NCBI RefSeq assembly: GCF_026168555.1
Contig: NZ_CP092471.1
Span: forward strand, 2,552,501-2,616,500
Reading direction: 5' to 3'
Length of the DNA stretch: 64,000 nucleotides
Origin: Qipengyuania spongiae
GTDB taxonomy: Bacteria; Pseudomonadota; Alphaproteobacteria; Sphingomonadales; Sphingomonadaceae
Positions 17,550 through 35,262 of this stretch are shown here, in pieces. A model generated the notes under the pieces. That model was not told where the DNA came from. It saw only the letters and a list, made by a program, of their open reading frames with translations, and ran no database searches. Made by a program: the position numbers and the translations under genes. Each line of letters starts with the position of its first letter. Position 1 is the first letter of the stretch.

Positions 17550-18680
17550 GTGCTCACCTCGCTGACGCCGGTGGTGATTCTCGGTACGATGGGCGCCTTC
17601 GTGCTGATGCGTTGGGAGAGGCTGCCGCTGATCCTGCGCGATGCATGGCCGCTGCTGCTGCTGCCGGGAATGGCCCTGCTCTCCACCACGTGGTCCGCCA
17701 TTCCGGGAACGAGTTTCTATTACGGCGTGCTCTACCTCGCCACGGTGCTCGCCGGGATGATGATCGGTCGCGGCATGGCACCGGGCACACTGCTGACCGG
17801 GTTCTTCACCGCCTTCGCCATCTTCACCGTGTTCAGCGTGCTGAGCATGCGCTTCACCGCCTGGGGCGGCGGCGGCACCGCCTTCGTCGGCCTTACCCAG
17901 TCCAAGAACAGTGCGGGCGACATGGCGGGTGTTGGGCTGCTCGCCACGCTGTGCTTTTTCTTCTCGGCGCTTTCCCGGCGCAAGCTGGTGCAGATGGGAC
18001 TCGCACTCGCCGTGGTGCCGTTCCTGCTGTTCGCCCTGTGGTTCAGCCGCGCGACCGGCGCGCTGGTGGCGACGACCGCGATCTTCGGCGTCACGCTCGC
18101 CTGGCTCGCCTCGCGCCTGCTGACAGTCCAGGCCCGTACGGCGATCTTCGTTCTCGCGATCGTGGTGATCGCCCTTCTGATCGCGACCCAGCAATTCTGG
18201 CTGCCGCCGCTGTTCGACGCGGTGCTGGAGAACAGCGGCAAGGATGCCGGGCTGACCGGCCGGGCCGACCTGTGGATTTACGCCGACGATCTTATATCTC
18301 GCAAACCGTTGCTCGGGCTCGGCTACAACGGCTTCTGGGTGCACAACAATCTGGATGCCGAATATATCTGGCGGCACATGGGCATCGGCTCGCGTTCAGG
18401 CTTCAATTTCCACAACACGCCGCGCGAGATCCTCGTCCATATGGGTTATGTCGGGCTGGCCATATTCGCCGTGGTCGCGATCATCGGCGCTCTCCGCCTG
18501 ATCGTTCTGACCAGTCAGACGCCGAGCCACGAGCGCATCTTCGCCTGTGCCATCGTGCTGTTCTACGCGATGAAGATGCCGTTCGAGGTGGTTGGCATTC
18601 CGCCGATCCATTTCGGCACGCTGACTTCGGTCGCAGTGCTGGCGATGGGGTTTCGTCGGACGGATCCGGCTCGCCGCTGA
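17550..18680 (+). CDS. O-antigen ligase / Wzy-type polymerase domain protein
   Basis: A 376-residue polytopic membrane protein with about ten helices and a periplasmic loop containing LTGRADLWIYADDLISRKPLLGLGYNGFW, typical of Wzy/O-antigen ligase proteins. It probably polymerises EPS repeat units. The GTG at 17550 lies inside the first helix. The frame stays open well upstream and encodes more of that helix (WIDVAIVATIVGASLFTLVLTSL) without any ATG, GTG or TTG, so a CTG start near 17412 is possible and the N-terminus is uncertain. Confidence 0.85.
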   Translation: MLTSLTPVVILGTMGAFVLMRWERLPLILRDAWPLLLLPGMALLSTTWSAIPGTSFYYGVLYLATVLAGMMIGRGMAPGTLLTGFFTAFAIFTVFSVLSMRFTAWGGGGTAFVGLTQSKNSAGDMAGVGLLATLCFFFSALSRRKLVQMGLALAVVPFLLFALWFSRATGALVATTAIFGVTLAWLASRLLTVQARTAIFVLAIVVIALLIATQQFWLPPLFDAVLENSGKDAGLTGRADLWIYADDLISRKPLLGLGYNGFWVHNNLDAEYIWRHMGIGSRSGFNFHNTPREILVHMGYVGLAIFAVVAIIGALRLIVLTSQTPSHERIFACAIVLFYAMKMPFEVVGIPPIHFGTLTSVAVLAMGFRRTDPARR

Positions 18681-18705: not shown

Positions 18706-19926
18706 TCAAGCGCGACCGTCCGCCCAGTCGCGCAGCTCGCGATGAACAGTCTCGGCGGAGAAATTGTGCACCGCGCTGGCAAGCGCCCGTTCCGCCAGGT
18801 TGGCACGGGCGTTCCGGTCGCCGGCGAGACGGGACACCGCCCCGGCGAATTCCGCCGCATCATCGGTGCAGATCACCGCCTCGCCGCAGTGCTCGGCCAC
18901 ACCCTGCAGCGTGATCGATGTCGCGACCACCGCCTTGCCCGCCGCCATGGCTTCGACAAGCTTGATCTTGAGCCCCGATCCGAATGTCAGAGGCGAGATC
19001 ACCACCCCCGCATCGCGGTAGAGTGGCGCAAGATCGGGAACGAGGCCGAGAAAACGCACGCCCTCTGGCACCGGCCCTTCGAAACCGCGATCGACCGTGC
19101 CCGCGACCTCCAGCACGCAAGCGGGCCGCGCTCGCCGGACCAAGGGCCAAACCTGCTCGAGGAACCAGCTCAGCCCCACCGTATTGGGCGCCGTGTTGCT
19201 GCCGACGAACAACAGCCGGTCGTCCTCGCCCGGCGCGGGACTCGTGGCGATTTCCGCCGGCATCGGTACCAACACCGCCCGCGTATCGGGCACCTGGGCG
19301 GCGACGAACGCGGCTTCCTCCTGCTGGATCGCCAGCACGGCGTCGGCCGCGCCAAGCATTCGCACCTCGTCATCGCGCGAGACGATCGCGACCGAATCCT
19401 TCCCCCCGCCGGCCCGCGCGTGAAACAAATCGTGCATGACGATCCCCGTTGCGGCGGCCTCCGGCGCGAGGGCGAGCGCGGGCGCGCAGAAAATGTAATC
19501 CGCGATCACCGCGGAACAGCCGGGCGGCAGATGGCGCTCGACGAAGGCCAGATCGGCCCGCACCCACGGCGTCGCGACCGAATAGGGACGCGGCCGGTCC
19601 TCGGTCCACCGCCCCTTCATTCCGACCTTGCGCAGCAGCTTGCGCGCGACCCCGGCGGCGGCGGCGGCCCAGATCGCGGGCGAGAGGACGATCCGCCAAT
19701 TGCCGAGGCGCAGGGTCGCGCGGATCGTGTGGCTTGCGAACACGTCCATTTCCGGCTGAAGACGCATTGCCGGCGTTCGCCCGAAAATATTCGGCGATGG
19801 CTGGATCAGGTGGACCTCGTGCCCCGTGCCGGCAAGGGAACGCGCGATCGCGATCAGATAGGCCGAACTGCCGTTCGTCGCGCCCACCAGCCGCTGCTTG
19901 CTGACGATGGCGATCGGGCCCTTCAC
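18706..19926 (-). CDS. GT-B glycosyltransferase (GT4-like), last gene of the lasso run
   Basis: A 406-residue protein with a GT-B layout: an N-terminal acceptor domain (IAIVSKQRLVGATNGSSAYL) and a C-terminal nucleotide-sugar domain with LLFVGSNTAPNT, VRFLGLVPDLAPLY, and GSGLKIKLVEAMAAGKAVVATS. Its GTG start overlaps the stop of the lasso ABC transporter gene (GTGA), so it is translationally coupled to the lasso genes although it resembles EPS glycosyltransferases. It may modify the lasso peptide or simply belong to the EPS locus that the lasso genes entered. Confidence 0.85.
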   Translation of the reverse strand: MKGPIAIVSKQRLVGATNGSSAYLIAIARSLAGTGHEVHLIQPSPNIFGRTPAMRLQPEMDVFASHTIRATLRLGNWRIVLSPAIWAAAAAGVARKLLRKVGMKGRWTEDRPRPYSVATPWVRADLAFVERHLPPGCSAVIADYIFCAPALALAPEAAATGIVMHDLFHARAGGGKDSVAIVSRDDEVRMLGAADAVLAIQQEEAAFVAAQVPDTRAVLVPMPAEIATSPAPGEDDRLLFVGSNTAPNTVGLSWFLEQVWPLVRRARPACVLEVAGTVDRGFEGPVPEGVRFLGLVPDLAPLYRDAGVVISPLTFGSGLKIKLVEAMAAGKAVVATSITLQGVAEHCGEAVICTDDAAEFAGAVSRLAGDRNARANLAERALASAVHNFSAETVHRELRDWADGRA

Positions 19927-21641
19927 GCCCGCTCCGCCTGCAATCTGCCGCGCTCGAGCACGATCCGGTCGTCCGCGATGTCGGCTAGCAAGGGCTGGTG
20001 CGCGATGAGCAGGATCGTCAGCCCGCCGTCGCGCAGCGCCAGTATCGTCTCGGCAACCTTGCGCTGATTGTCCGCGTCCAGCGCCGAGGTTGCCTCGTCC
20101 AGAATCAGGATTTCCGGATCGGGCAGCAATGCCCGCGCGATGGCGAAACGTTGCCGCTCGCCGCCCGAAAAGCGCGTCCCGCGATTGCCGACCTCGGTAT
20201 CGAGACCGTCCGGCAGGCTTCGCACCAGCGCCGCGATCCGTGCACGCTCGAGCGCCGACCAGATCTCGCCTTCGGAAGCATCGGCCTTCGCCAGCCGCAT
20301 GTTTTCCCGCAGCGAAACGTCGAAGAGGAAGGCGTCCTGCGGCACGGTGGCGACGCGGCTGCGCCACACGCGGCGATTGGTCGCGTCGATCGGTGTTTCG
20401 TCCACCAACATCGCTCCGGCAGTGGGAGTGACGAGGCCCGAAACGATATCGGCGAGTGTGCTCTTGCCGCTGCCCGAGGAGCCCAGTAGCGAGGTGATCC
20501 GCCCTGCCGCGATTGTCACCGTCACGTTGTCGAGTGAGGGCTGCGCGCCGTTCTCGTAAATTTTCGACACCCCAGTCAACGCGATCCGCCGCGCGAGGCG
20601 CGGTGGCGGGATATCGGCGCTGTCCTGCTGTTCCTGATCGGCCCTGAAATAAGTCATCATCGCGGTGAACTCGGCATAGGCGGGCGCGTTGGAAAGATAT
20701 TGCTGCCCCTGGTCCTGCAACACGCCGAAACGCGGCGCCAGGCGAGCGAAGATGACCAGCAGCACCGCGATCCGCGCGAGTCCCAGGTCGAAGACCTCGA
20801 CCGCAAGATAGACGAAGCTCGCCGCGAACACCGCCACGCCGATCTGGAAAACCAGCGAGCCGAGCGAGGACTGGGCGTAGAATCGCAGCGTGCTGCGCCG
20901 GATCGCGCCGAGATGACCGTCGAACGAGCGCATGAAATGGCGCTCTGCCACGAAGGTCTTGGCGAGCCGCACACCGTTGAGGAAATCGAGAGTCACCCGG
21001 CTCTGTTGCTGGAACATTTCGGTCAACTCGTGCCCGTAGCGGCTCGCCCGGCGCCGCAGCGGATACATCGCCGCGAACAGGGCTGCGCCGACCAGCACCG
21101 CGAACAGCGCCATCTGCCAAGATACCGCGGCGGCGATGGCAACGTAGATCGCGATCAGTATCGCGGCCTGCACAAGCATGTTGAACGCATTCGCTGCCGT
21201 CATGCAACGCGGGATGCCACTGACGAATACCTGATTGACGTCCGACAGCCGGCGACGGGCGATCGCGTCCCATTCAGCATGGGAGACAGCATGAAAAAGG
21301 GAGCGTTTCAGCCGGTCGGACAGCAGTTGCATCAGGTGCAGCGAATAGTAGTTCCTCAGATAATTCAGCGCTGCCTGGACGCATATCAGAACGATAAAGA
21401 GCGCCAACAGAAACGGCAGGCCGAGCGAGGCACCGGCAATGAGGTCGCCGATCAGCGGGATGTCGGCGGCCTGCTGCGCTGTCTCCGGGCTGGTGGAGGC
21501 GACAATCGGGATCAGCATCGTGATCGAGATGCCTTCGGTGAGCGCGACGACCAAGGCGAGCAGCACGGTCCAGCCGACCTTCCCCTCGGTCCCCTTCCAC
21601 AGCAGCCGGACCACTTCGCCGAAAGTCGAGCTCCGGCTCAC
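19923..21641 (-). CDS. Lasso peptide ABC exporter (D protein)
   Basis: A 572-residue fused transmembrane/ATPase half-transporter: about six helices in residues 22-300, then the ATPase with Walker A GSSGSGKS (387-394), signature FSGGERQRFAIARAL and Walker B EILILDEATSALD. It has no N-terminal C39 peptidase, as expected for lasso exporters, where B2 removes the leader. The GTG start overlaps the kinase stop (GTGA). It probably exports the mature lasso peptide and confers self-immunity; EPS export is an alternative but less consistent with the coupling. Confidence 0.85.
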   Translation of the reverse strand: MSRSSTFGEVVRLLWKGTEGKVGWTVLLALVVALTEGISITMLIPIVASTSPETAQQAADIPLIGDLIAGASLGLPFLLALFIVLICVQAALNYLRNYYSLHLMQLLSDRLKRSLFHAVSHAEWDAIARRRLSDVNQVFVSGIPRCMTAANAFNMLVQAAILIAIYVAIAAAVSWQMALFAVLVGAALFAAMYPLRRRASRYGHELTEMFQQQSRVTLDFLNGVRLAKTFVAERHFMRSFDGHLGAIRRSTLRFYAQSSLGSLVFQIGVAVFAASFVYLAVEVFDLGLARIAVLLVIFARLAPRFGVLQDQGQQYLSNAPAYAEFTAMMTYFRADQEQQDSADIPPPRLARRIALTGVSKIYENGAQPSLDNVTVTIAAGRITSLLGSSGSGKSTLADIVSGLVTPTAGAMLVDETPIDATNRRVWRSRVATVPQDAFLFDVSLRENMRLAKADASEGEIWSALERARIAALVRSLPDGLDTEVGNRGTRFSGGERQRFAIARALLPDPEILILDEATSALDADNQRKVAETILALRDGGLTILLIAHQPLLADIADDRIVLERGRLQAERA

Positions 21642-22561
21642 TCGTCCGCGCCCAGAGCACGCCCCACGGTCTCGACCGCTTCGGGAAGGCGTTCCAGACT
21701 CGCGGGAATGTGGAGGACACCCACTCTCACCGCGCGCGCCAGCGCGGCGCAGTGCTGAAAGTGCCGCCGGCGATCGAGCATTTCGGGCGGCGCCGTATCG
21801 AAGCGGACATTGTAGCTGAAACGGGCTAGCTGGGTCAGCGCGTCCGACTGGTCCAGCCATTCCACCCGCGCTTCCTCGCCTCCGCGCTGCAGAACGAACA
21901 GGGCATCGAACCCGTCCGGCTGGTCGGCCAGTCCGTCGAGCCGGTGCTGGCGCTTGGGAAATCCGTCGATGATGAGCGGCAGGGCCTCGGCCCCTTCGAC
22001 CGGCACCGCCTCGGCCGATTCCTCGCTCAGTTTCAGCTGCGCGAAGGCGGGCTGGACCGTCGGGCGGGCAGGGTCGTCCATGTCGAAGACCAGCAGGTCG
22101 TCGGTCACGAGCCGTCCGCCATCACGCAGGAAAGCGGCAGCGGTGGTCGACTTGCCCGCCAGCTTGTCGCCCAGGAAGCCGAACGCCCGGCCCCGCCACA
22201 CCAGCGCGCTCGCATGGAGGATCATCCGCCCGCGCAAGTGCAGATACCAGGCGACCACCGGGCCGAGCAGCGGGAAAGCGACATATTCGGGCTTGGCGAT
22301 CGAGGCCGGTTGCATTTCGATCACATCCGGCAGGCGGATGCGGAAACCTCCGACATGGGGCCAGAGCATGACGACGCCCTCCGGATCGTCGAAATCGAAT
22401 TGCGAGGGCGCGTCGGGCGGCGGAATGGCGCGGCCGATATCCGTCACGACGATACGAAGGTCGGGTTCTCCTGCCTCGGCTGCGTCGACCTCTGCCAGCT
22501 CGGGCAGAGGCCACTCGCTTTCGATCGCCAATCCGAAGGCGCGATATCGGTGCAAGGTCAT
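21638..22561 (-). CDS. HprK-like kinase of the lasso cluster
   Basis: A 307-residue protein of the HPr-kinase-like family found in lasso clusters. The P-loop is GDKLAGKST (131-139, Lys137), preceded by ILHASALVW and followed by LVTDDLLVFD. Characterised relatives in paeninodin-type clusters and in Sphingobium phosphorylate the C-terminal Ser hydroxyl of the precursor. The core peptide encoded at 25236-25379 does end in Ser. ATG at 22561 overlaps the cyclase stop (ATGA) and its stop overlaps the ABC start, so it is embedded in a coupled operon. Confidence 0.88.
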   Translation of the reverse strand: MTLHRYRAFGLAIESEWPLPELAEVDAAEAGEPDLRIVVTDIGRAIPPPDAPSQFDFDDPEGVVMLWPHVGGFRIRLPDVIEMQPASIAKPEYVAFPLLGPVVAWYLHLRGRMILHASALVWRGRAFGFLGDKLAGKSTTAAAFLRDGGRLVTDDLLVFDMDDPARPTVQPAFAQLKLSEESAEAVPVEGAEALPLIIDGFPKRQHRLDGLADQPDGFDALFVLQRGGEEARVEWLDQSDALTQLARFSYNVRFDTAPPEMLDRRRHFQHCAALARAVRVGVLHIPASLERLPEAVETVGRALGADE

Positions 22562-24339
22562 GCCGGTTCCAGAAGCGGGACGAGTTCGGGCGGCGGAACG
22601 GTGGGGTCGAATTGGTCGAGCCACATGCACAGCACCGTACAGCGCCAGATGAAACGCGCATCGTCGTTTTCCAGCTCTGTCCCTTTCCGGCCCAGCACGT
22701 CCCGCACCCGTTCCAGCCGATCGAGGTTCACCAGGTCGCGGAACAGATGGTGTGTTCCGGCCGTCCAGTCCAGGACCTGTTCGCGCTTGTCGCTCAGGCC
22801 CGCGACGAAGGGCGCGGTGAAATCGTATTTCGTCCCGCGCTCCAGCACCTCGCGCGGCAGGCGCGACCGCATCGCCTCGCGCAGAACGAAGCGCGTCAGG
22901 CCCCCGCGCAGTTTCCAGTGCGAGGGCAGCGAAAGGCTGAACTCGATGAGGTCCCGATCGTAGAATGGCATTTCGGTAACGACGCCCGCCGCCCGGCTGG
23001 TCTGCGTGATGGATTCGATGGCAAGCGGCTGCATCGGCGATTCGAGCGCCTCCAAATGCAGCATTCGCTCGTCGTGATCGCGCCGCGACTGCAGGGAGAC
23101 GTAGGTCAACTGTTCCGCACCGACGAGGTCTTCTGCCCTGTCCGACAGCGAGGGATCGCCTGCTGTCTGCGCGTCGGGAAGGATTTTCCGGATCAGCCTC
23201 TCGACAGGGCGATAGGCGGGATAATGAGTCAGGTAATTGCGCATGAAGCGCAGCCGCGAATCGCGCGAAAGCTGCGCCACGCCCGCGGTTTCGCGCCACA
23301 CGGAGAGCCAGCGATGCGCCCGGGCGAGTTCGTTCAGTCGCCCCGATCCATAGCCGACCACCTCGTCGCCGCCGTGCCCCGAAAGCAGCGTCGTCCACCC
23401 CTTGGCCCGCGCGACCTTCTGCAACTTGGCGGTCACGGAGTGGCCGTAGGAAAGATAGGGTCCGTCGAGCAACTCGAGATATTCACCGATATCTTCGAGC
23501 GGATCGTGCCGATCGCTCGGAACCTCATTCAGCTCCAGGTCGAAATGATTGCGCAACACATCCAGATAGTGCGCGTCGCTCCATCCCTTGGTCCCGCGAT
23601 AGGTCTTGGTAAGACAAGGGATCTCTGAAGGCGCAATACCGTTGGCCGTCACCGCGCCCAGAATGGCGGATGAATCCATCCCACCGCTGAGAAGAACGGC
23701 CGTCTTCCCGGAATGGAAACTGCGGAGGACCGAGCGGTCGAAAAGCTTGCGGAAGCGCGCCGCTGCATGGTCGCAAGGTACGTCTCGCGGGGCATCGTGG
23801 GGAGACCAATAGCGCCGCATCTCGCCGTTCGATGCAGCGGAAAATTCGAGAATATGGGCTGGCAACAAACGTGAAAGGCCGGCGAAGAACGTCCTGCCGC
23901 GCGTGGTCGACTGGCTATTGAGGAACTCGGCATGAAACACTTCGTCGAGCGACAGTTCCTGCCCGAACAATGCGCGCGCCATCCGCGACGTGGCGGCGAC
24001 AGCGAGGCGATGCGGCGCCGCGACGTAGAACAACGGCGCCAGTCCGGAAATGTCACGCACCAGCGAAAGAATCTGTCCCTGCGGTTCGAAGATCGCGAAT
24101 GCGAAAGCGCCACGCAACCGGTTGGCCAGTTCGTCGCCCCACACCCGCCAGCCCTCCAAGAGGACTTGCTCGACCGAAGCTTCGCCGCCGAGCCCGAGGG
24201 CACGGCGCATCGCGTCCATATTGTCGATACGGGTCGAAGGCGAAAGAAAGGCGAGGACCGCGCGCCGCCCCCGGGCATCACCGACCGGTTCGGACCGCCG
24301 CCATAACAACCCCGTAAGATCGCGCGTCGTTTCGATCAC
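22558..24339 (-). CDS. Lasso cyclase (asparagine-synthetase-like, C protein)
   Basis: A 593-residue asparagine-synthetase homologue. The N-terminal glutaminase-like half lacks the nucleophilic Cys after Met1 (it begins IETTRDLTG), so it cannot act as a normal amidotransferase. The C-terminal half has the ATP-pyrophosphatase loop LLSGGMDSS (218-224) and a second motif LLSGHGGDEVVGYG. Lasso cyclases adenylate the ring Asp/Glu side chain and join it to the new N-terminus. GTG at 24339 overlaps the B2 stop (GTGA). Predicted acceptor: Asp9 of the core peptide. Confidence 0.92.
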   Translation of the reverse strand: MIETTRDLTGLLWRRSEPVGDARGRRAVLAFLSPSTRIDNMDAMRRALGLGGEASVEQVLLEGWRVWGDELANRLRGAFAFAIFEPQGQILSLVRDISGLAPLFYVAAPHRLAVAATSRMARALFGQELSLDEVFHAEFLNSQSTTRGRTFFAGLSRLLPAHILEFSAASNGEMRRYWSPHDAPRDVPCDHAAARFRKLFDRSVLRSFHSGKTAVLLSGGMDSSAILGAVTANGIAPSEIPCLTKTYRGTKGWSDAHYLDVLRNHFDLELNEVPSDRHDPLEDIGEYLELLDGPYLSYGHSVTAKLQKVARAKGWTTLLSGHGGDEVVGYGSGRLNELARAHRWLSVWRETAGVAQLSRDSRLRFMRNYLTHYPAYRPVERLIRKILPDAQTAGDPSLSDRAEDLVGAEQLTYVSLQSRRDHDERMLHLEALESPMQPLAIESITQTSRAAGVVTEMPFYDRDLIEFSLSLPSHWKLRGGLTRFVLREAMRSRLPREVLERGTKYDFTAPFVAGLSDKREQVLDWTAGTHHLFRDLVNLDRLERVRDVLGRKGTELENDDARFIWRCTVLCMWLDQFDPTVPPPELVPLLEPA

Positions 24340-24767
24340 AGGTCGACCAGTCGATTGAAGGTCTGCAGGTTCTCCTCCCGCCCGCCGATGATGCATTCCC
24401 CGCCGTAGAGGACCCACGCATGCGCGCCGAATGGCTTGTCCTCGCCGCTCTTCACACCGATCCGGATCACGCATTCCCGGTTCGCGCGCAGCAACAGGTA
24501 GCGAACGGCCAGCGCCTGCGCGAGGCAAAGAGCGCCCGGAACGAAGCGCGCGGCGTTCGAGACCGACCAGGCCGCGACATGAACGGGAATGTCGTAGGTC
24601 TCCCTTCCCGTCGTATTTCGTTCGATCCATTGCTGCACCGAGCGATAGGACCCTAAGGAGAGCCCGATCCGCACCCGCGCCAGGACGACGAAAGCGTAGA
24701 CGAGCGGGCGGTGATGGCGGCGGATCAGCCGCAGATAGCGCCGCAGTCGTTCAAGCCTGTCGCTCAA
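24336..24767 (-). CDS. Lasso peptide leader protease (B2, transglutaminase-like)
   Basis: A 143-residue protein of the lasso biosynthesis B2 family. The catalytic Cys81 lies in RFVPGALCLAQALAVRYLL and His116 in FGAHAWVL, the typical spacing of this transglutaminase-like fold; the third acidic residue was not assigned. It cleaves the leader after the Thr-x pair, probably when delivered by the RRE protein encoded just upstream. Its ATG overlaps the RRE gene by 17 bp. Confidence 0.93.
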   Translation of the reverse strand: MSDRLERLRRYLRLIRRHHRPLVYAFVVLARVRIGLSLGSYRSVQQWIERNTTGRETYDIPVHVAAWSVSNAARFVPGALCLAQALAVRYLLLRANRECVIRIGVKSGEDKPFGAHAWVLYGGECIIGGREENLQTFNRLVDL

Positions 24768-25017
24768 TCAGACCAGCCTCTTCAAGCGCCTTGAGCAAAT
24801 CGATTATGTCGTCCCGGCAATCCTCCTGCGACACATCGAAGACCGAGGAAAGCTCTTCCTGCATTTGTTCCAGCGTATTGCCCGCCTCGACATTCTTCCA
24901 GATCAGCGCCCCGGTATCGTTGAGTTTGAAATACTGACTCGTCTCAAGATTGAGCAGAGCCTGACCGGCGTCCAGGTCGCAGGCAACCACGTTCGGGCGA
25001 GCGGCAAACTTCAACAT
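24751..25017 (-). CDS. PqqD-family RiPP recognition element (lasso B1)
   Basis: An 88-residue winged-helix protein with the PqqD/RRE pattern: three strands (ACDLDAGQALLNLETSQYFKLNDTGALIW) and helices ending in LLKALEEAGLIE. Such stand-alone RREs bind the YxxPxL part of the lasso leader and guide the B2 protease. The gene begins 218 bp downstream of the precursor stop. Its ATG at 25017 is preceded by a GGGGAAGG-type ribosome site. Confidence 0.93.
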   Translation of the reverse strand: MLKFAARPNVVACDLDAGQALLNLETSQYFKLNDTGALIWKNVEAGNTLEQMQEELSSVFDVSQEDCRDDIIDLLKALEEAGLIERQA

Positions 25018-25102
25018 GACAGCACCTTCCCCTGTATAGGCACCCGACCATTGCCCCGAGCAGGTGCCGTGGCGAGGTCTCGACGAATGAGGGTCTCAAG
25101 GC

Positions 25103-25139
25103 AAACAAAAAGCGGCCGCGAAACGACCGCTTTTTGTTT
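25103..25139. terminator. Bidirectional intrinsic terminator between lasso precursor and B1 gene
   Basis: A perfect 13-bp inverted repeat, AAACAAAAAGCGG (25103-25115) and CCGCTTTTTGTTT (25127-25139), encloses an 11-nt loop. The A-run and T-run make it a hairpin with a U-tail in either direction. It follows the precursor gene on the minus strand, so most transcripts should end here with partial read-through into B1-B2-C-K-D, giving an excess of precursor over enzymes. Confidence 0.85.
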
Positions 25140-25190
25140 TCCGAGCATATCGCTTCTACCGCTTACGGCCGATGCGATCGCTTTGAAGGC

Positions 25191-25224
25191 GGGAGCGGAG
25201 CGCCTAGAAAGCGCTTCCGCTCCC
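25191..25224. repeat. Stem-loop just downstream of the lasso precursor gene
   Basis: GGGAGCGGAGCGC (25191-25203) and GCGCTTCCGCTCCC (25211-25224) form a GC-rich stem with one bulged base and a 7-nt loop, 11 bp after the precursor stop. It has no T-run, so alone it is not a terminator. It may protect the 3' end of the precursor mRNA from exonucleases after termination at 25103-25139. Confidence 0.65.
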
Positions 25225-25235
25225 ACTCCTGTCGA

Positions 25236-25379
25236 TCAGGAGAAGCAGGTGAACTGCGAGGACGGTGTGCCGACAGGGAAAGTGGCATCCGCGTTACCCG
25301 GGCAGGAAGCACCCTTCGTGATGGTCTCGAAAGAGCCGATTTCGTTGAGAGTGGGACGTTCGTAGCTGCGCTTCTTCAT
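25236..25379 (-). CDS. Lasso peptide precursor (A)
   Basis: A 47-residue peptide with an excellent ribosome site (AAGGAG, 6 nt before ATG). The leader, residues 1-22, has the lasso consensus Tyr6-x2-Pro9-x-Leu11-x3-Gly15-x5-Thr21, with Thr at the required penultimate position. The predicted core is residues 23-47 (25 aa), beginning GASCPGNAD and ending QFTCFS. Gly1 can be joined to Asp9 (9-residue ring). Cys4 is in the ring and Cys23 in the tail, allowing one ring-tail disulfide, and the C-terminal residue is Ser25. It is followed by B1, B2, C, kinase and exporter genes on the same strand. Leader motif and context make the assignment secure; ring and disulfide are prediction. Confidence 0.93.
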   Translation of the reverse strand: MKKRSYERPTLNEIGSFETITKGASCPGNADATFPVGTPSSQFTCFS

Positions 25380-25632
25380 AAGAAACTCCTTGGATGTGTC
25401 GTTTCAGTAGGGATGACCGTGCGACATGGCGCTTTCGGGATTGCTCTTGGTCTTCCCTGGTGTATCGCGCCTTTGCCCGAGCTGCGGAATCACAGATCGT
25501 TAACTGATTCGCAACCATATTCGCGTTGCATTGCGACATGATCGCATGTCTGTCCCATTTCCGCACAGGTTTGCACATTCTCGAACGAGATGGGTAATAC
25601 TTAAATAAATCAATATTTTATTTGCGGGACGG
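25380..25632. promoter_or_regulatory. Divergent control region between lasso precursor and nucleotidyltransferase genes
   Basis: On the plus strand TTGCAC (25571-25576) and TAATAC (25595-25600), 18 bp apart, form a good sigma70 promoter reading toward the nucleotidyltransferase gene, in an AT-rich stretch. An inverted repeat GACATG-N4-CATGTC lies at 25535-25550. The 9-mer TGCGACATG occurs twice in this region (25420-25428 and 25532-25540), a possible operator pair. I could not identify a convincing minus-strand promoter for the precursor. Confidence 0.55.
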
Positions 25633-25809
25633 GTGTCGGGGCGCGAACGGCGTTACCTCCCGATACTCCTATGCCGCATGTGCGAAGACAAGGCCCGTGA
25701 GGCCAGTGAAGCGGCTCCCTCGAAGGTCCGGCGGAGCGATTTGCATTCGGTTGTTTCCTCCGTGAGTGGGTCGTGGCAAAGCGGCTACCTTTATCGGGGG
25801 CAGATAAAG

Positions 25810-26949
25810 ATGCGGAAAAGGAGGCGGACCCTGCAACGAATGGATGACAGTGGCCGATCTGACGCGTTATCCGAGCTCGACCCGTCCCGCTACGCCCATA
25901 TCGACAGTCTGCTGGCGCTGTTGGGATTGTGGTTCGTAGGAGAGGAGCCTTCACCCAAGGTGGAGGATTGGAACACGATTCTGGACATTGCTGCGCGAAC
26001 CAAGACCGCCGGCCTCGTCGCGCACGTCGCAGATCGCGTTGCCGTGCCGGAGGGGATTGCGGGCAAGATCAGCCAGATGCGTGACGCGATCCTGGTGCGC
26101 AATCTGCGCAATCTCGATTGGACGACCAAGGCGGTGATGGCGCTCGACGCTGCCGGAATAACCTCGCTCGTGTTCAAAGGCGTCTTGCGGTCCAAGCAGG
26201 TATACGGCACCTGGAATGTGCGCGCCTCGAACGACATCGACCTCCTCGTTCCCCGCTCGCGTTACGACGAAGCCCGAAAGGCTTTGAAGGAAGCGGGGTT
26301 CGCGCCTCAAGTGCCGGACGATTCGCAGTGGTGGCACCGATGTCTCGGCGAAGCGCCCTATCGGCGGGGGGATTCCGATTGTCCGTTCATAGATCTGCAT
26401 CAGAGCCTTCAGCAGCCCGGAGGCCCCTATCCTCTTGATCTCGAAAGCTTCTTCGATACCGCAATTACCACCAAATTCGGCGGAGTCGATCTCCGGACGC
26501 CGGACCCGCTCCACGCCCTTCTCATTTGTGCGATAAATTACGGCAAGGCCGTGCGCGCGCATGATCCCGTCATCGCGCCGCTCCACGAGCTCGCCTATGC
26601 CACGCGTGAATTCGGGCCGGACGAAGAAGAGCAATTGCGCCAACTCGCTCGCAAGCAGGGGCTGCGCCGGCTTGTCGATCGATCCCTGGCCGACGCGAAC
26701 ACCATGTTCCCATACGCCCTGGATCAGACTGATCGGGATATCCATTCCGATCCAGTATCGCTGGCAATGCGCCCTTGGCGCGAGCGCCCTGTTCTTCATC
26801 GCACTCGCCTCATCTGGGAATGGACCGATGGTCGGCTTCCGGGACGGGTCGGGGGGTTCGGCAGCGGGATCGGCCGCGTCCTGATGAGCAATCTGCAGCA
26901 CCACATCGACGAGCGGCGCGGTCGGCTCGCGCTGGGCCACACGGCGTAG
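25810..26949 (+). CDS. Nucleotidyltransferase family protein (NTP_transf_5-like), divergent from the lasso precursor
   Basis: A protein of about 379 residues (ATG at 25810; the frame is open to a GTG at 25633 and another ATG lies at 25840). It resembles the NTP_transf_5 family of lasso and other peptide clusters: ITSLVFKGVLRSKQVYG followed by RASNDIDLLVPRSRYDEA, where the Asp-x-Asp would bind metal in the nucleotidyltransferase fold. Paeninodin- and pseudomycoidin-type lasso clusters pair such a gene with an HprK-like kinase, and it is thought to act on the phosphorylated C-terminus. Its own promoter lies in the shared 25380-25632 region. Confidence 0.8.
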   Translation: MRKRRRTLQRMDDSGRSDALSELDPSRYAHIDSLLALLGLWFVGEEPSPKVEDWNTILDIAARTKTAGLVAHVADRVAVPEGIAGKISQMRDAILVRNLRNLDWTTKAVMALDAAGITSLVFKGVLRSKQVYGTWNVRASNDIDLLVPRSRYDEARKALKEAGFAPQVPDDSQWWHRCLGEAPYRRGDSDCPFIDLHQSLQQPGGPYPLDLESFFDTAITTKFGGVDLRTPDPLHALLICAINYGKAVRAHDPVIAPLHELAYATREFGPDEEEQLRQLARKQGLRRLVDRSLADANTMFPYALDQTDRDIHSDPVSLAMRPWRERPVLHRTRLIWEWTDGRLPGRVGGFGSGIGRVLMSNLQHHIDERRGRLALGHTA

Positions 26950-26977: not shown

Positions 26978-28075
26978 CTAGCGCAATGTTGCCTTCGCCA
27001 GCACTGTCGGCCACAGTCGCGGCGGGGTGATGGCCGCAGCATCGCGTATGCGCCCCTGCTTCAGCAAGCGTGCGCCTGCCTCGCCGAGGTACCAGTCTAT
27101 TTCGCGGCGATTGCCCGGCGGCAGGTCGAGATTATCAGCGCCGCGCACCTGTTCCGCGATGAAGTCGCAATCCTCGGTCTCGATTTCGAACGGGCGATAA
27201 GCCGCCAGTTCGAGCAATTTGATCCCCGCCGCCAGTCCAAACCTGTTCCGGTCGACCTCCGCTACGTGCCCGCGCGCAATCGCGCACATGGTTTCCAGCG
27301 AGCGCGCATCTTTCAGCGCAGGAACCAGATCCGTCGTGAAACCGGCATCCCCTTCCCCCCGTGTTCGGGCCCGCGCCGCGAGGGCACCCAATTGGGATCC
27401 GACCGCCATGATCCGACCGTTGACTATCGACCCGCCCGATATCGACTGGGTGTGGAAGCGATATCTGCCAAGCCCTTCGTCGAGATTGTGCAGCCGTCCC
27501 GCCTCCGCCAGTCGCCAGTAAAGATCACTGTCTTCGGAATGGGGCACGTAGCGATAGCCGCCCGCCTTCATGACAGCTTCCCGCCTCGCCATCAGGAAAG
27601 GGTGAATGAGATATGGTTCGCGGGCCGGGACCCAGTTCGCGTCCGCAAGCGCCGGATCGCCGGGATGCGGCAGGCCCGCGAGCGGTCGACCATGTTCATC
27701 GATATGCTCCACCCGTCCGGCGACCGCCACCACATCCTCGTTCGCAGTCAGATAGCTGTATTGCCGATAGAACCGGTCGGGATCGCACAGGTCGTCCGCG
27801 TCCATTCGCGCGACGAACGGCGCGCTGGCCAGCGACAGAGCGGTGTTGAGCGCCGCCACAATTCCTGCATTCGCTTGAGAGGTTACAGAGAATCGTCGAT
27901 CGGCACGTGCCCAGCGTGAGAGAACGGCGGCCGATCCATCGGTACTGCCGTCATCGACGGCGATCACGTGGAAATCCGTAAAGCTCTGCGCCGCGATAGT
28001 TGCGAGAGCCTCGTCCAGCGTTTCGGCGGCGTTGTAAACCGGGATCAGGACGTCGATTGCCGCGACATCGCTCAC
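26978..28075 (-). CDS. Glycosyltransferase family 2
   Basis: A 365-residue GT-A enzyme. The GTG at 28075 overlaps the stop of the upstream glycosyltransferase gene (GTGA) and leads directly into VAAIDVLIPVYNAAETL. It also shows FHVIAVDDGSTDGSAAVL, ARMDADDLCDPDRF (DxD) and HSEDSDLYWRL. It probably adds one residue of the EPS repeat and is translated with the next gene upstream. Confidence 0.9.
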   Translation of the reverse strand: MSDVAAIDVLIPVYNAAETLDEALATIAAQSFTDFHVIAVDDGSTDGSAAVLSRWARADRRFSVTSQANAGIVAALNTALSLASAPFVARMDADDLCDPDRFYRQYSYLTANEDVVAVAGRVEHIDEHGRPLAGLPHPGDPALADANWVPAREPYLIHPFLMARREAVMKAGGYRYVPHSEDSDLYWRLAEAGRLHNLDEGLGRYRFHTQSISGGSIVNGRIMAVGSQLGALAARARTRGEGDAGFTTDLVPALKDARSLETMCAIARGHVAEVDRNRFGLAAGIKLLELAAYRPFEIETEDCDFIAEQVRGADNLDLPPGNRREIDWYLGEAGARLLKQGRIRDAAAITPPRLWPTVLAKATLR

Positions 28076-29031
28076 AACTCTCCACTCCGCCGGCGGACGG
28101 TGGATGCCAGTTTCCTGCCTGCTATCCGCGCAGCCAGCGCCAGCCACATGCCCGCCGCTAACGGAACACCGACAAGCAGCGCCGCCCATGCCCGCCGCGC
28201 GCGCAGATACCGCAGGGCCGAACGCAATTCGCGGAGCAGAGCAGCCAGGTCGCTACGGGAGGGGACGGAAAAGCGCTCGCGCATCCACCCTGACAGATAG
28301 GCGTCGCGGCTATCGGGCCGCAGCATATATTTGGCGAAATAGGCTCCCCGCCCCCGGTCGTATCCCTCCATCAACAGCGGAAAATCCGCTGCCTTGCGGC
28401 CGTGATGGTGGCGCACGACCATCGTCGGATCGAAACGGCCGGGAATGCCCGCCCACAGGCATGCGGCCACCGCGTCGATGTCCTCGCAGGGGAATGGCGT
28501 GCCTGCCCCCAGCATCGTGTCGATGCCGCCGATCGCCTCGAGCGCGCTGCGGCGGAAGGCGAAATTGGCGCCCTGCAAGGTGCCGGGCGGCGCAAAACTG
28601 TACGGCGCAATCATCTCGGTTTCGGTCCGTTCGTCGATCGTTACCGGGTAGTCGGAAGGATCGTGAAGGAGGATGCGGCCACCGATCAAACCGGTTTGTG
28701 GATGTTTTGCGAACGCTTCGAGCGTGGCGTCGACGATGTCCGGCGCCACATAGCAATCGTCGTCGGTGAACAGGACGATGTCGCCCTTCGCCATCCGCCA
28801 TGCCGCATCGCGCGCCGCGCCGAGACCGATCGCGGTCACGGTTTCCACCCGCGCATCCGGAAAGTCCCCCGCCGCCGCATCAAGGATCTGGCGCGTCTCG
28901 TCGGTCGAGGCGTTGTCGATCAGCAGCAATTCCCATGCCCGCTCGCTGCGCACGGCCTGCAGCGCCGCGAGCATCGGCCCGAGCGAGGGCGCGCGGTTGC
29001 GTGTGCAGATTATGATGGAAAGCTCGGTCAA
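28072..29031 (-). CDS. Glycosyltransferase family 2
   Basis: A 319-residue GT2 enzyme (TTG start, MTELSIIICTRNRAPSL) with LLLIDNASTDETRQIL, IVLFTDDDCYVAPDIV and the acceptor-loop residues CEDIDAVAA. A hydrophobic segment near the C-terminus (AALLVGVPLAAGMWLALA) suggests membrane attachment. It forms a two-gene unit with the downstream glycosyltransferase and belongs to the EPS locus. Confidence 0.9.
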   Translation of the reverse strand: MTELSIIICTRNRAPSLGPMLAALQAVRSERAWELLLIDNASTDETRQILDAAAGDFPDARVETVTAIGLGAARDAAWRMAKGDIVLFTDDDCYVAPDIVDATLEAFAKHPQTGLIGGRILLHDPSDYPVTIDERTETEMIAPYSFAPPGTLQGANFAFRRSALEAIGGIDTMLGAGTPFPCEDIDAVAACLWAGIPGRFDPTMVVRHHHGRKAADFPLLMEGYDRGRGAYFAKYMLRPDSRDAYLSGWMRERFSVPSRSDLAALLRELRSALRYLRARRAWAALLVGVPLAAGMWLALAARIAGRKLASTVRRRSGEL

Positions 29032-33001: not shown

Positions 33002-34513
33002 GTGAAGAGCACCTCCAACCTCCTGATGAGGGGAGCCTTCTGGATCGGGGCCACGCGGGTCGCCGTCAACCTGATGGGCCTCGCGAGCACGATCATCCTT
33101 GCGCGCCTGCTGGTGCCGGAGGATTTCGGCCTGGTGGCGATCGCGACCGCACTGGCCGCAGTCATCCAGGCGGTCACCGAACTTTCCCTGTCGCAGGCGC
33201 TCGTTCAGCACGCCGATCCCGAGGAGGATCATTTCCACACCGCCTGGACCATGAACGTCCTGCGGGCGGCCATCCTCGGTGTGCTGATCGCCGCACTCGG
33301 CTGGCCGGCGGCCTATTTTTACGCCGAGCCGCGCCTAATCGAGATCATGATCGGCTTCGGTATCGCCAATGTGATCGGAGGCTTCATCAATCCCCGGCTG
33401 GCGCTGTTCGAGCGCAGGCTCGAATTCAAACAATGGGTGTTTCTAAGTGGCGGCGAGAAGCTGGCGGGTTTCGTCGTATCGGCGGGTATCGCCTTCGTCT
33501 TCCGGTCCTACTGGGCGCTCGTCGTAGGTGTGCTGGCCTCGCAGTTGACGCGGGTGATCGTGTCTTACGCGCTCATTTCCTATCGTCCGCGCCCGCGGCT
33601 TTCGCATTATCGCGACCTGCTTAATTTCTCGATCTGGCTGACCTTCGGACAGGCGGTGCAGGCGATCAACTGGCGCGCTAATCCATTGCTGCTTGCCGCC
33701 TTCCTGCCGACGCCGGTGGTCGGCAGCTACAATGTCGCATCACGCGTCTCCTCGCTCGCAGTCAACGAGGTGCTGGAGCCGGTCAATGCGTTGCTCTTCC
33801 CCGCCTTCTCGCGCCTCCAGTCCGAGCGCGAGCGGCTGCGCGCCGCCTATATCAGGACGCAGGGGCTGCTCGCCCTGCTGTCTTTCCCGGTCGGATGCGG
33901 ACTCGCCGCAGTGGCCGCGCCGACCGTGCTGCTGGTGCTGGGCGAACAATGGCGCAGCGCCATTCCGATCGTGCAGTTCCTCGCCATCGCGGCGGTGATC
34001 CAGCGCCAGGTGCAGCTGAGCCCGCTTGCCATGGCGACTGCCAATACCAAGCAGATGTTCGGCCGCGACGTGCGCGCGCTGATAATCCGCCTTCCGCTGG
34101 TGCTGGGCGGCCTCGCCTTCGGCCCGTCGCTCGGCGTCGGAAGCCTGTTCGGCGCGCTGATCGGCCACACGCTGTCCTCGCTCCTTAATGCGCTGCTCAA
34201 CATGCAGCTGGTGGCGAAGATCATCGATCTCGGCCTGATGCAGCAGATGAAGCAGATCTGGCGTCCCGCGGTGGCCGGAACGTTGATGGCGCTTTGCGTC
34301 GCCGGAGCACTCGCGCGCCTGCCCGAACAGTCCGAGTTGGTCGGCCAAATCGCCATGCTGATCGGCGCGGTCGCTGCGGGCGGGGTGCTCTATGTCGGCA
34401 TCGTCGCCCTGTTGTGGCTGATTGCGGGCCGTCCGGCAGGAGCGGAGACCGAGGCGGTCGACACGGCGCGCAAAGTTCTGGGCCGGCTGCGTTCGCGAGG
34501 CGCCCCGGCCTAG
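33002..34513 (+). CDS. Wzx-type polysaccharide flippase (MOP superfamily, WzxC-like)
   Basis: A 503-residue membrane protein with about 12-14 helices. The start STSNLLMRGAFWIGATRVAVNLMGLASTIILARLLVPEDFGLVAIA is typical of WzxC/ExoT-type exporters. It would flip lipid-linked EPS repeat units across the inner membrane for the Wzy-type polymerase at 17550 and the Wzc co-polymerase at 8988. GTG start, 12 bp after the pyruvyl transferase. Its stop shares a CTAG with the convergent TonB-like gene. Confidence 0.93.
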   Translation: MKSTSNLLMRGAFWIGATRVAVNLMGLASTIILARLLVPEDFGLVAIATALAAVIQAVTELSLSQALVQHADPEEDHFHTAWTMNVLRAAILGVLIAALGWPAAYFYAEPRLIEIMIGFGIANVIGGFINPRLALFERRLEFKQWVFLSGGEKLAGFVVSAGIAFVFRSYWALVVGVLASQLTRVIVSYALISYRPRPRLSHYRDLLNFSIWLTFGQAVQAINWRANPLLLAAFLPTPVVGSYNVASRVSSLAVNEVLEPVNALLFPAFSRLQSERERLRAAYIRTQGLLALLSFPVGCGLAAVAAPTVLLVLGEQWRSAIPIVQFLAIAAVIQRQVQLSPLAMATANTKQMFGRDVRALIIRLPLVLGGLAFGPSLGVGSLFGALIGHTLSSLLNALLNMQLVAKIIDLGLMQQMKQIWRPAVAGTLMALCVAGALARLPEQSELVGQIAMLIGAVAAGGVLYVGIVALLWLIAGRPAGAETEAVDTARKVLGRLRSRGAPA

Positions 34514-35262
34514 CGCGGCCGCGCGAACCAGCCATGCGTCTCGATCATCTGCGCGCGCACCGCCCGCCCCTCGGCATCGCGCGCCGGACGGAAACGGAAG
34601 CGCTGCTCGATCAGGCGGCAGGCGGTGCTGTCGAGCAGCGCGCTGCCGCTCGAGCGCTCGGCCCGGCAGCCGGTCGCCCGGCCATTGGGCAGCACGGTAA
34701 AGACCACTTCGACCTCGATCGTACCGTAATCGGTCAGCACGCCTTCGGGCAGGTCGCGATAGGACAGCGTGCCGGAGATCCGGCGCGGTCCGACCACCGC
34801 CTCGCCCCCGCCAGTCCCGTCGCCATCGCCGCCCAGCCCGCCGCCGCCGCGCCCCTCGCCGCGATTGCCGGCGCCCTGCCCCGGTCCGGGCAGATCCGAT
34901 GCGCCGGTCTGCGACGCGGCACCAATGTCGGGCGCGGGCGCGGCGACGACCGGAGGAGGGAGGACGATCGGCTTGACCGGAGGCACGATGATTGGAGTCG
35001 AACGGTTGCGCAAATTGCGCTCCCCCGCCTCGTCCTTCGGTGCGGCGCGCCGGGGGTCGGGCTCCTCAACGCGCTGCGTTGGGCTAGGCGTCGGCGTCGG
35101 CGCAGGACGCGGTTCGTCGAGCGCGACGGCGACCAGCGCGGGTGGTTCGATGCGCGAAGGCAATTCGATGCCGATCCCCCAGATCAGCACGGCGAGGCCG
35201 AGGCCAGTCACACCCAGCGCGAAGGTCGCCGAGGCCAGCCGTGGTGGTCGCGAGGCGTACAT
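34510..35262 (-). CDS. TonB-like energy transducer family protein
   Basis: A 250-residue protein with one N-terminal helix (about residues 14-32), a long Pro/Gly-rich periplasmic linker (PAPTPTPSPTQ, then a Gly-rich stretch) and a C-terminal TonB-like domain with RDLPEGVLTDYGTIEVEVVFTVLPNGRATGCRAERSSGSALLD and RFRFRPARDAEGR. It could transmit proton-motive force to outer-membrane receptors or act as a cell-envelope protein of the TonB-C fold. No exbB/exbD genes are adjacent. Confidence 0.8.
   Translation of the reverse strand: MYASRPPRLASATFALGVTGLGLAVLIWGIGIELPSRIEPPALVAVALDEPRPAPTPTPSPTQRVEEPDPRRAAPKDEAGERNLRNRSTPIIVPPVKPIVLPPPVVAAPAPDIGAASQTGASDLPGPGQGAGNRGEGRGGGGLGGDGDGTGGGEAVVGPRRISGTLSYRDLPEGVLTDYGTIEVEVVFTVLPNGRATGCRAERSSGSALLDSTACRLIEQRFRFRPARDAEGRAVRAQMIETHGWFARPR

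What the first reader, a model, noticed from the sequence alone, without database searches (positions are those of the whole stretch)
18706..26949. Complete lasso-peptide cluster embedded in an exopolysaccharide locus, with a precursor gene easily missed for its size
The 47-codon gene at 25236-25379 has the exact lasso leader pattern (Tyr6, Pro9, Leu11, Gly15, penultimate Thr21) and a strong ribosome site. It is followed on the same strand by RRE (B1), B2 protease, cyclase, HprK-like kinase and ABC exporter genes, all joined by short overlaps. The cluster lies between EPS glycosyltransferase genes with no transposase remnants.
Basis: partly seen in the sequence, partly recalled or inferred. 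Interest (0 to 1): 0.88.

Follow-up and report, generated by a model that had tools for sequence, protein, structure and literature searches.

The report
Phosphorylated lasso-peptide cluster in polysaccharide locus
A marine-type alphaproteobacterium carries genes for a small knotted peptide, probably tagged with phosphate and perhaps sugar, inside the locus that makes its slime polysaccharide, and in relatives the two gene sets tend to turn up together, which hints at a shared role.

Summary
The finding is real. On the minus strand lie a lasso precursor (25236-25379), B1/RRE, B2, cyclase, HprK-like kinase and ABC exporter; a GT4 glycosyltransferase follows with a 4-base overlap and a PF14907 nucleotidyltransferase diverges upstream. 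Correction: the precursor does not overlap B1; 218 nt with a 17-bp hairpin lie between. The gene set is that of paeninodin/pseudomycoidin-type lasso clusters, known to be phosphorylated, in one case hexosylated, on a C-terminal Ser. Of the 120 best-scoring precursor homologues (own included), 120 have Asp9 and 119 end in Ser. The window's core has Cys4 and Cys23; among the 120 this pair occurs in 8 and a single Cys in none, so a class III-type ring-tail disulfide is predicted. The EPS setting recurs: leaving out the window's genome, 8 of 9 family genomes with this kinase clade also carry the neighbouring Wzy, within about 21 kb, against 8 of 387 others (five of the nine are one genus). None of 50 sampled B2+cyclase loci without kinase has an EPS-specific marker within 20 kb. 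A 2026 paper already reports paeninodin-type clusters in capsule loci of Bacilli; this extends that to Sphingomonadaceae. Product and role are untested. Verdict: new member of a known kind.

The parts
25236..25379 (-). Lasso precursor A, 47 aa; leader 1-22, predicted core of 25 residues with ring Gly1-Asp9, Cys4, Cys23 and C-terminal Ser
   Evidence: NF033521 over cut-off; alignment of 11 precursors; 120 listed homologues
25103..25139 (-). 17-bp hairpin between A and B1, possible attenuator or terminator
   Evidence: Fold z -4.02 against 200 shuffles; similar hairpin in L015. The terminator scan did not report it
24751..25017 (-). B1, RRE/PqqD-like leader-binding protein, 88 aa
   Evidence: PF05402 and lasso PqqD models
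24336..24767 (-). B2 leader peptidase, 143 aa
   Evidence: NF033537 over cut-off; Cys81 and His116 invariant in 11 loci
22558..24339 (-). C, lasso cyclase (asparagine-synthase-like); GTG start inferred
   Evidence: PF00733, NF033535 below cut-off; start codon
21638..22561 (-). K, HprK-like kinase for the precursor's C-terminal Ser (role inferred)
   Evidence: Weak TIGR04352 hit; His116, Lys137, Asp154, Asp155 invariant in 11 loci
19923..21641 (-). D, ABC exporter; GTG start inferred
   Evidence: PF00005 and PF00664
18706..19926 (-). GT4-type glycosyltransferase overlapping D by 4 nt; GTG start inferred
   Evidence: PF13692, best NCBIfam TIGR03087 below cut-off
25810..26949 (+). N, PF14907 nucleotidyltransferase, divergent from A; start at 25810 or 25840
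   Evidence: PF14907 101.9 bits; Asp-x-Asp invariant in 11 loci; nucleotidyltransferase-fold model
17550..18680 (+). Wzy_C O-antigen-ligase/polymerase-type EPS protein used for the linkage test
   Evidence: PF04932
26978..29031 (-). Two GT2 glycosyltransferases of the EPS locus (26978-28075, 28072-29031)
   Evidence: PF00535
33002..34513 (+). Wzx-type polysaccharide protein of the EPS locus
   Evidence: PF13440 and PF01943
8988..11129 (-). Wzc-like AAA/GNVR protein of the EPS locus
   Evidence: PF13614 and PF13807

Best explanation
This is a paeninodin/pseudomycoidin-type lasso cluster that travels with one lineage of Wzy-type EPS loci. Most likely working (inferred step by step): B1 binds the leader; K phosphorylates the C-terminal Ser; B2 cuts after residue 22; C joins Gly1 to Asp9 around the tail; Cys4 and Cys23 oxidise to a class III-type ring-tail disulfide; N adds a hexose or similar group through the phosphate; D exports the product. 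The product most likely acts at the cell surface or in the matrix alongside the polysaccharide. Shown here: genes, motifs, precursor conservation, Cys both-or-none pattern, recurring EPS linkage. Not shown: any chemical step, the product, the role.
For: Gene set and domains. Ten further loci with precursor, Asp9 and C-terminal Ser; 120 of 120 listed homologues with Asp9, 119 with Ser. K residues and spacing equal those of BsfK. Known kinases phosphorylate the C-terminal Ser, and PsmN is needed for hexose on it (passages of PMC9266682). EPS link: 8 of 9 against 8 of 387 genomes without the window's own, p 8e-12; within the genus 4 of 4 against 1 of 55, p 1e-5; K and Wzy identities correlate over nine genomes, r 0.89, permutation 0.00025.
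Against: The linkage test is not corrected for phylogeny: five of the nine non-own kinase genomes are one genus; by genus without the window's own it is 3 of 4 against 8 of 95 genera, p 0.0016. Wzy was chosen because it stands beside this cluster. G185 has the kinase and no Wzy, and 8 genomes have Wzy without this kinase at the threshold. Most other kinase-bearing lasso loci sampled are not near EPS-specific markers: 2 of 22 K+C loci. K falls far below its model's cut-off. BsfK, also HprK-like, phosphorylates Ser3 and not the C-terminus, so the site here is not certain.
Confidence: 0.6

Rival explanations
1. The product is an ordinary narrow-spectrum bacteriocin or signal; the EPS locus is only a hot spot of exchange in which the cluster sits, so linkage reflects joint transfer and not joint function.
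For: Related Wzy-type EPS loci occur without the cluster (G026; others), so the EPS does not need it. Distribution is patchy: cyclase in 5 of 60 genus genomes. EPS loci are often exchanged (general knowledge).
Against: Identities of K and Wzy follow each other over nine genomes, a different divergent lasso-like set sits in a related EPS locus in G253, and a similar link is reported in Bacilli (passages of PMC13381572). None of these excludes joint transfer.
Confidence: 0.3
2. The lasso peptide is covalently joined to the EPS or a sugar carrier through the phosphate on its C-terminal Ser, with N and the GT4 as linker enzymes.
For: K, N and GT4 sit together and D and GT4 overlap by 4 nt; PsmN-dependent hexose on the phosphorylated Ser is known; N has a nucleotidyltransferase fold with FKRP, which I recall as a ribitol-phosphate transferase, among weaker matches.
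Confidence: 0.1
3. The cluster is silent or decaying cargo.
For: The promoter scan found no sigma-70-like site near A (0 found, 0.5 expected), which is weak evidence in this group.
Against: Frames are open and catalytic residues kept; in G001 B1 to D are 79-90% identical while A is 64%.
Confidence: 0.05

Closest known systems
Pseudomycoidin (psm) and paeninodin (pade) clusters
   Same: Split B1/B2, cyclase, exporter, HprK-like kinase and, in psm, a nucleotidyltransferase; precursor ending in Ser (passages of PMC9266682)
   Different: Bacilli there, alphaproteobacteria here; a Cys4/Cys23 pair here; N divergent and a GT4 coupled to D here. Sequences of those proteins were not compared here
Syan cluster of Sphingobium yanoikuyae
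   Same: Sphingomonad precursor with conserved C-terminal Ser and kinase SyanK (passages of PMC9266682)
   Different: SyanA sequence not seen here; it may well belong to the same precursor family
bsf cluster of Bradymonas sediminis
   Same: A, B1, B2, C, D, K and N gene set; same spacing of kinase residues (passages of PMC10368454)
   Different: BsfK acts on core Ser3, precursor ends in Asp, penultimate leader residue is Ile there and Thr here
Paeninodin-like and LPP clusters in capsule loci of Bacilli
   Same: HprK-like kinase, NTP transferase and exporter in polysaccharide loci; role unknown (passages of PMC13381572)
   Different: Different phylum; no SpI-type peptidase was reported in the cluster proteins scanned here
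Class III lasso peptides (BI-32169, 9401-LP1)
   Same: One Cys in the ring and one in the tail (passages of PMC9266682 and PMC13352647)
   Different: The bond is only predicted here; kinase and nucleotidyltransferase in the cluster; 25-residue core

Membership tests
Lasso-peptide biosynthetic cluster | Precursor with lasso leader, RRE, B2 peptidase and cyclase together | tested here: met
Lasso-peptide biosynthetic cluster | Threaded macrolactam product | not testable with these tools
   Needs mass spectrometry and NMR; only Gly1 and Asp9 positions seen
Paeninodin/pseudomycoidin-type cluster | HprK-like kinase with His, Lys, Asp, Asp residues | tested here: met
   His116, Lys137, Asp154, Asp155 invariant in 11 of 11 loci; model score low
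Paeninodin/pseudomycoidin-type cluster | C-terminal Ser in the precursor | tested here: met
   Window Ser47; 11 of 11 aligned; 119 of 120 listed
Paeninodin/pseudomycoidin-type cluster | Nucleotidyltransferase with nucleotidyltransferase fold and Asp-x-Asp (psm, bsf) | tested here: met
   PF14907, model
Paeninodin/pseudomycoidin-type cluster | Phosphate or hexose on the product | not testable with these tools
   No experiment possible
Class III lasso peptide | One Cys in the ring and one in the tail | tested here: met
   Cys4 and Cys23 in the core; pair in 8, single in 0 of 120 listed homologues
Class III lasso peptide | Disulfide between them | not testable with these tools
   Needs the product
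Isopeptidase-type lasso clusters of sphingomonads | Isopeptidase gene in the cluster | tested here: inconclusive
   No isopeptidase or other peptidase hit reported for the nine cluster and flanking proteins apart from B2; no dedicated isopeptidase search was run

The most novel reading that the evidence does not exclude
The lasso peptide is built to be joined to the exopolysaccharide: kinase and nucleotidyltransferase make a phosphodiester-linked sugar on its C-terminal Ser, the GT4 and EPS machinery extend it, and the cell displays a disulfide-locked lasso peptide tethered to its own matrix.
Probability: 0.1. Interest if true: 0.88.

Novelty: new member of a known kind. Interest (0 to 1): 0.45.

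Why it matters
The role of kinase-bearing lasso peptides is unknown. A statistical tie of one kinase clade to one EPS lineage in Sphingomonadaceae, found in a different phylum from the reported case in Bacilli, makes a surface or matrix role worth testing and offers Gram-negative hosts for it. The Cys4/Cys23 pair gives a predicted class III-type disulfide in a family whose other members mostly lack Cys, so the two forms can be compared.

Tried and rejected
Led nowhere: sequence search of solved structures with N and K; tblastn of the cyclase against plasmid records, no match at E 1e-40; single-protein scan of genome contigs, two loci only, an Erythrobacter MAG (the same contig as G001 by length) and a weak Kordiimonas hit. 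Short tail strings were not found in the paper library, which lacks most subscription papers; the paeninodin paper is not held. VIA-align and Foldseek lists for N did not show a hexosyltransferase; that excludes nothing.

Rejected: that kinase-bearing lasso clusters in general sit in EPS loci (2 of 22 K+C loci within 20 kb). Rejected: that the GT4 is specific to the lasso cluster (L150 and L151). Rejected: that the B2-like genes near Wzc in L129-L131 are lasso clusters; no cyclase was found in the 20 kb and the L129 neighbours scanned include acyl-CoA dehydrogenase, GST and FAA-hydrolase genes.

Limits: EPS markers were made from the window's own genes, so other EPS types are undercounted in the controls. 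The 80 control loci were picked from the listed B2 places, mostly best-scoring first, some skipped, and three (L129-L131) taken from the window's genus; the sample is not random. L105 and L121 are among the 22 K+C loci and counted as without marker because their Wzy lies about 21 kb off. The 397-genome searches with the cyclase, K and Wzy scored only a few candidates per genome. In the precursor scan the other kinase-bearing loci gave no candidate or differently built ones. The 120 homologues are the best 120 of 225 under a profile made from Asp9/Ser precursors, so conservation is partly selected for. L019's Wzy was cut at 97 residues in the matrix comparison. G253 counts as Wzy without the kinase at the threshold used though a divergent kinase is there.
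Full report
What is there. On the minus strand, in order, lie precursor A (25236-25379), B1 (24751-25017), B2 (24336-24767), cyclase C (22558-24339), kinase K (21638-22561), ABC exporter D (19923-21641) and a GT4 glycosyltransferase (18706-19926). B2 starts with TTG and C, D and GT4 with GTG in this reading, A, B1 and K with ATG. From B1 to GT4 neighbours overlap by 17, 4, 4, 4 and 4 nt. A is separated from B1 by 218 nt with a 17-bp hairpin at 25103-25139 (the folded 71-nt stretch -29.2 kcal/mol, z -4.02); a similar hairpin stands in L015. An attenuator that favours precursor over enzymes would fit (inference); the terminator scan did not report it. A PF14907 nucleotidyltransferase N runs divergently from about 25810 to 26949. 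K is the weakest assignment by models (24.7 bits against a cut-off of 200, no Pfam hit).

The genome. It has 2.93 Mb in 2 contigs. The nearest named relative is an Erythrobacter MAG with a 79% identical cyclase; L013 and L015 are the same contig. B2 has one match in this genome. Lasso clusters as such are reported in many Erythrobacter species (passages of PMC9723273).

The setting.

Precursor conservation. Homologous clusters in L015-L021, L067, L105 and L121 hold a precursor at the matching place; in the alignment of 11, Tyr6, Pro9, Gly15, Thr21, core Asp9 and C-terminal Ser are invariant and Thr38 nearly so. A profile search found 225 proteins with E up to 0.001, 120 listed; source names include lasso RiPP leader proteins of Erythrobacter, Sphingomonas, Brevundimonas and Devosia. 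Of the 120, own included, 120 have Asp9, 119 end in Ser and 1 in Asp; 112 have no Cys in the core and 8 have Cys at 4 and 23; none has one Cys. L018 also has the pair. The list is the top of the ranking, so it favours precursors like the query.

Is the EPS link real? In the genus the cyclase (E 1e-40) is in 5 of 60 genomes (which searched 99 genomes, 60 of this genus) and the Wzy homologue (E 1e-30) in 6 of 60: the same five and G026; the GT4 (E 1e-60) is in 4 of 60, all with the cluster. Without the window's own genome: 4 of 4 against 1 of 55, p 1e-5. In 397 family genomes K (E 1e-25) is in 10 and Wzy (E 1e-20) in 17; 9 have both, with K and Wzy 3 to 21 kb apart. Without the own genome: 8 of 9 against 8 of 387, p 8e-12; five of the nine are one genus. 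By genus, without the window's: 3 of 4 against 8 of 95, p 0.0016. The remaining genome, G185, has no Wzy match at E 1e-10 but a Wzc-like gene within the 20 kb fetched (L067).

Control. Of 80 B2-centred loci taken from the family, 50 have cyclase and no kinase, and 0 of these has a Wzy, Wzc, Wzx, pyruvyltransferase or GT4 hit within 20 kb; 22 have cyclase and kinase, and 2 do (L056, L067); 8 have no cyclase, and 3 do (L129-L131). So the link belongs to this clade, not to kinase-bearing lasso clusters at large. L105 and L121, of this clade, are counted among the 22 as without marker, since their Wzy lies 21 kb away.

Co-inheritance. K and Wzy identities correlate over nine genomes (r 0.89, permutation 0.00025; C and Wzy 0.91, 0.0003). 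Part of this will be common descent. G032, of the window's genus, has K at 38% and Wzy at 36%, while G099 of another genus has 46% and 51%, which suggests that both moved together rather than followed the host. G253 carries N, K and Wzy, and further along the same contig Wzx, Wzc, B2, B1, D, C and a divergent candidate precursor that also ends in Ser.

Against a joint role. G026 has a related Wzy locus and no cyclase at the threshold (its fetched stretch ends at the contig end), and eight family genomes have Wzy without this kinase, one of them G253. Joint transfer could give linkage without joint function.

What is known. Kinases PadeK, ThcoK, SyanK and PsmK phosphorylate the C-terminal Ser, and PsmN is needed for hexose on it (passages of PMC9266682). 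The bsf cluster has the same gene set, but BsfK acts on Ser3. Rumen lasso clusters often hold kinases, glycosyltransferases and nucleotidyltransferases (passages of PMC7533575). A 2026 paper describes paeninodin-like clusters embedded in capsule loci of Bacilli, says both RiPP types often co-localize with such loci and that their roles are unknown (passages of PMC13381572). My searches pairing lasso peptide with exopolysaccharide (71 papers, 20 listed), Erythrobacter (6), capsular polysaccharide and other terms (136, 20 listed), and Sphingomonadaceae plus polysaccharide (2) listed no title on this link in alphaproteobacteria; unlisted and subscription papers were not seen.

Conclusion. The finding is correct. 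The cluster is a new member of the paeninodin/pseudomycoidin kind. What it adds is a counted tie between one kinase clade and one EPS lineage in a second phylum, and a predicted class III-type disulfide in a kinase-bearing lasso family. Product and role remain to be tested.

Noticed in passing
L149:3503-11146 and L154:4748-18084 (genome G253): One EPS locus with N, K and Wzy at one end and Wzx, Wzc, B2, B1, D, C and a divergent lasso-like candidate precursor ending in Ser further along.
   Followed up: partly
L129, L130, L131, near 10,000: B2-like (lasso_biosyn_B2) genes in three genomes of the window's genus with no cyclase within 20 kb and a Wzc-like gene about 6 kb away; L129 neighbours are catabolic genes.
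   Followed up: partly
L089, L100, L123: Rearranged loci with B1, K and C on one strand and B2, exporter and nucleotidyltransferase elsewhere, with Gly/Asp-rich leader-type candidate precursors of another kind.
   Followed up: no
window 34510-35262: A protein with a TonB C-terminal domain on the minus strand between the Wzx-type gene and recG.
   Followed up: no
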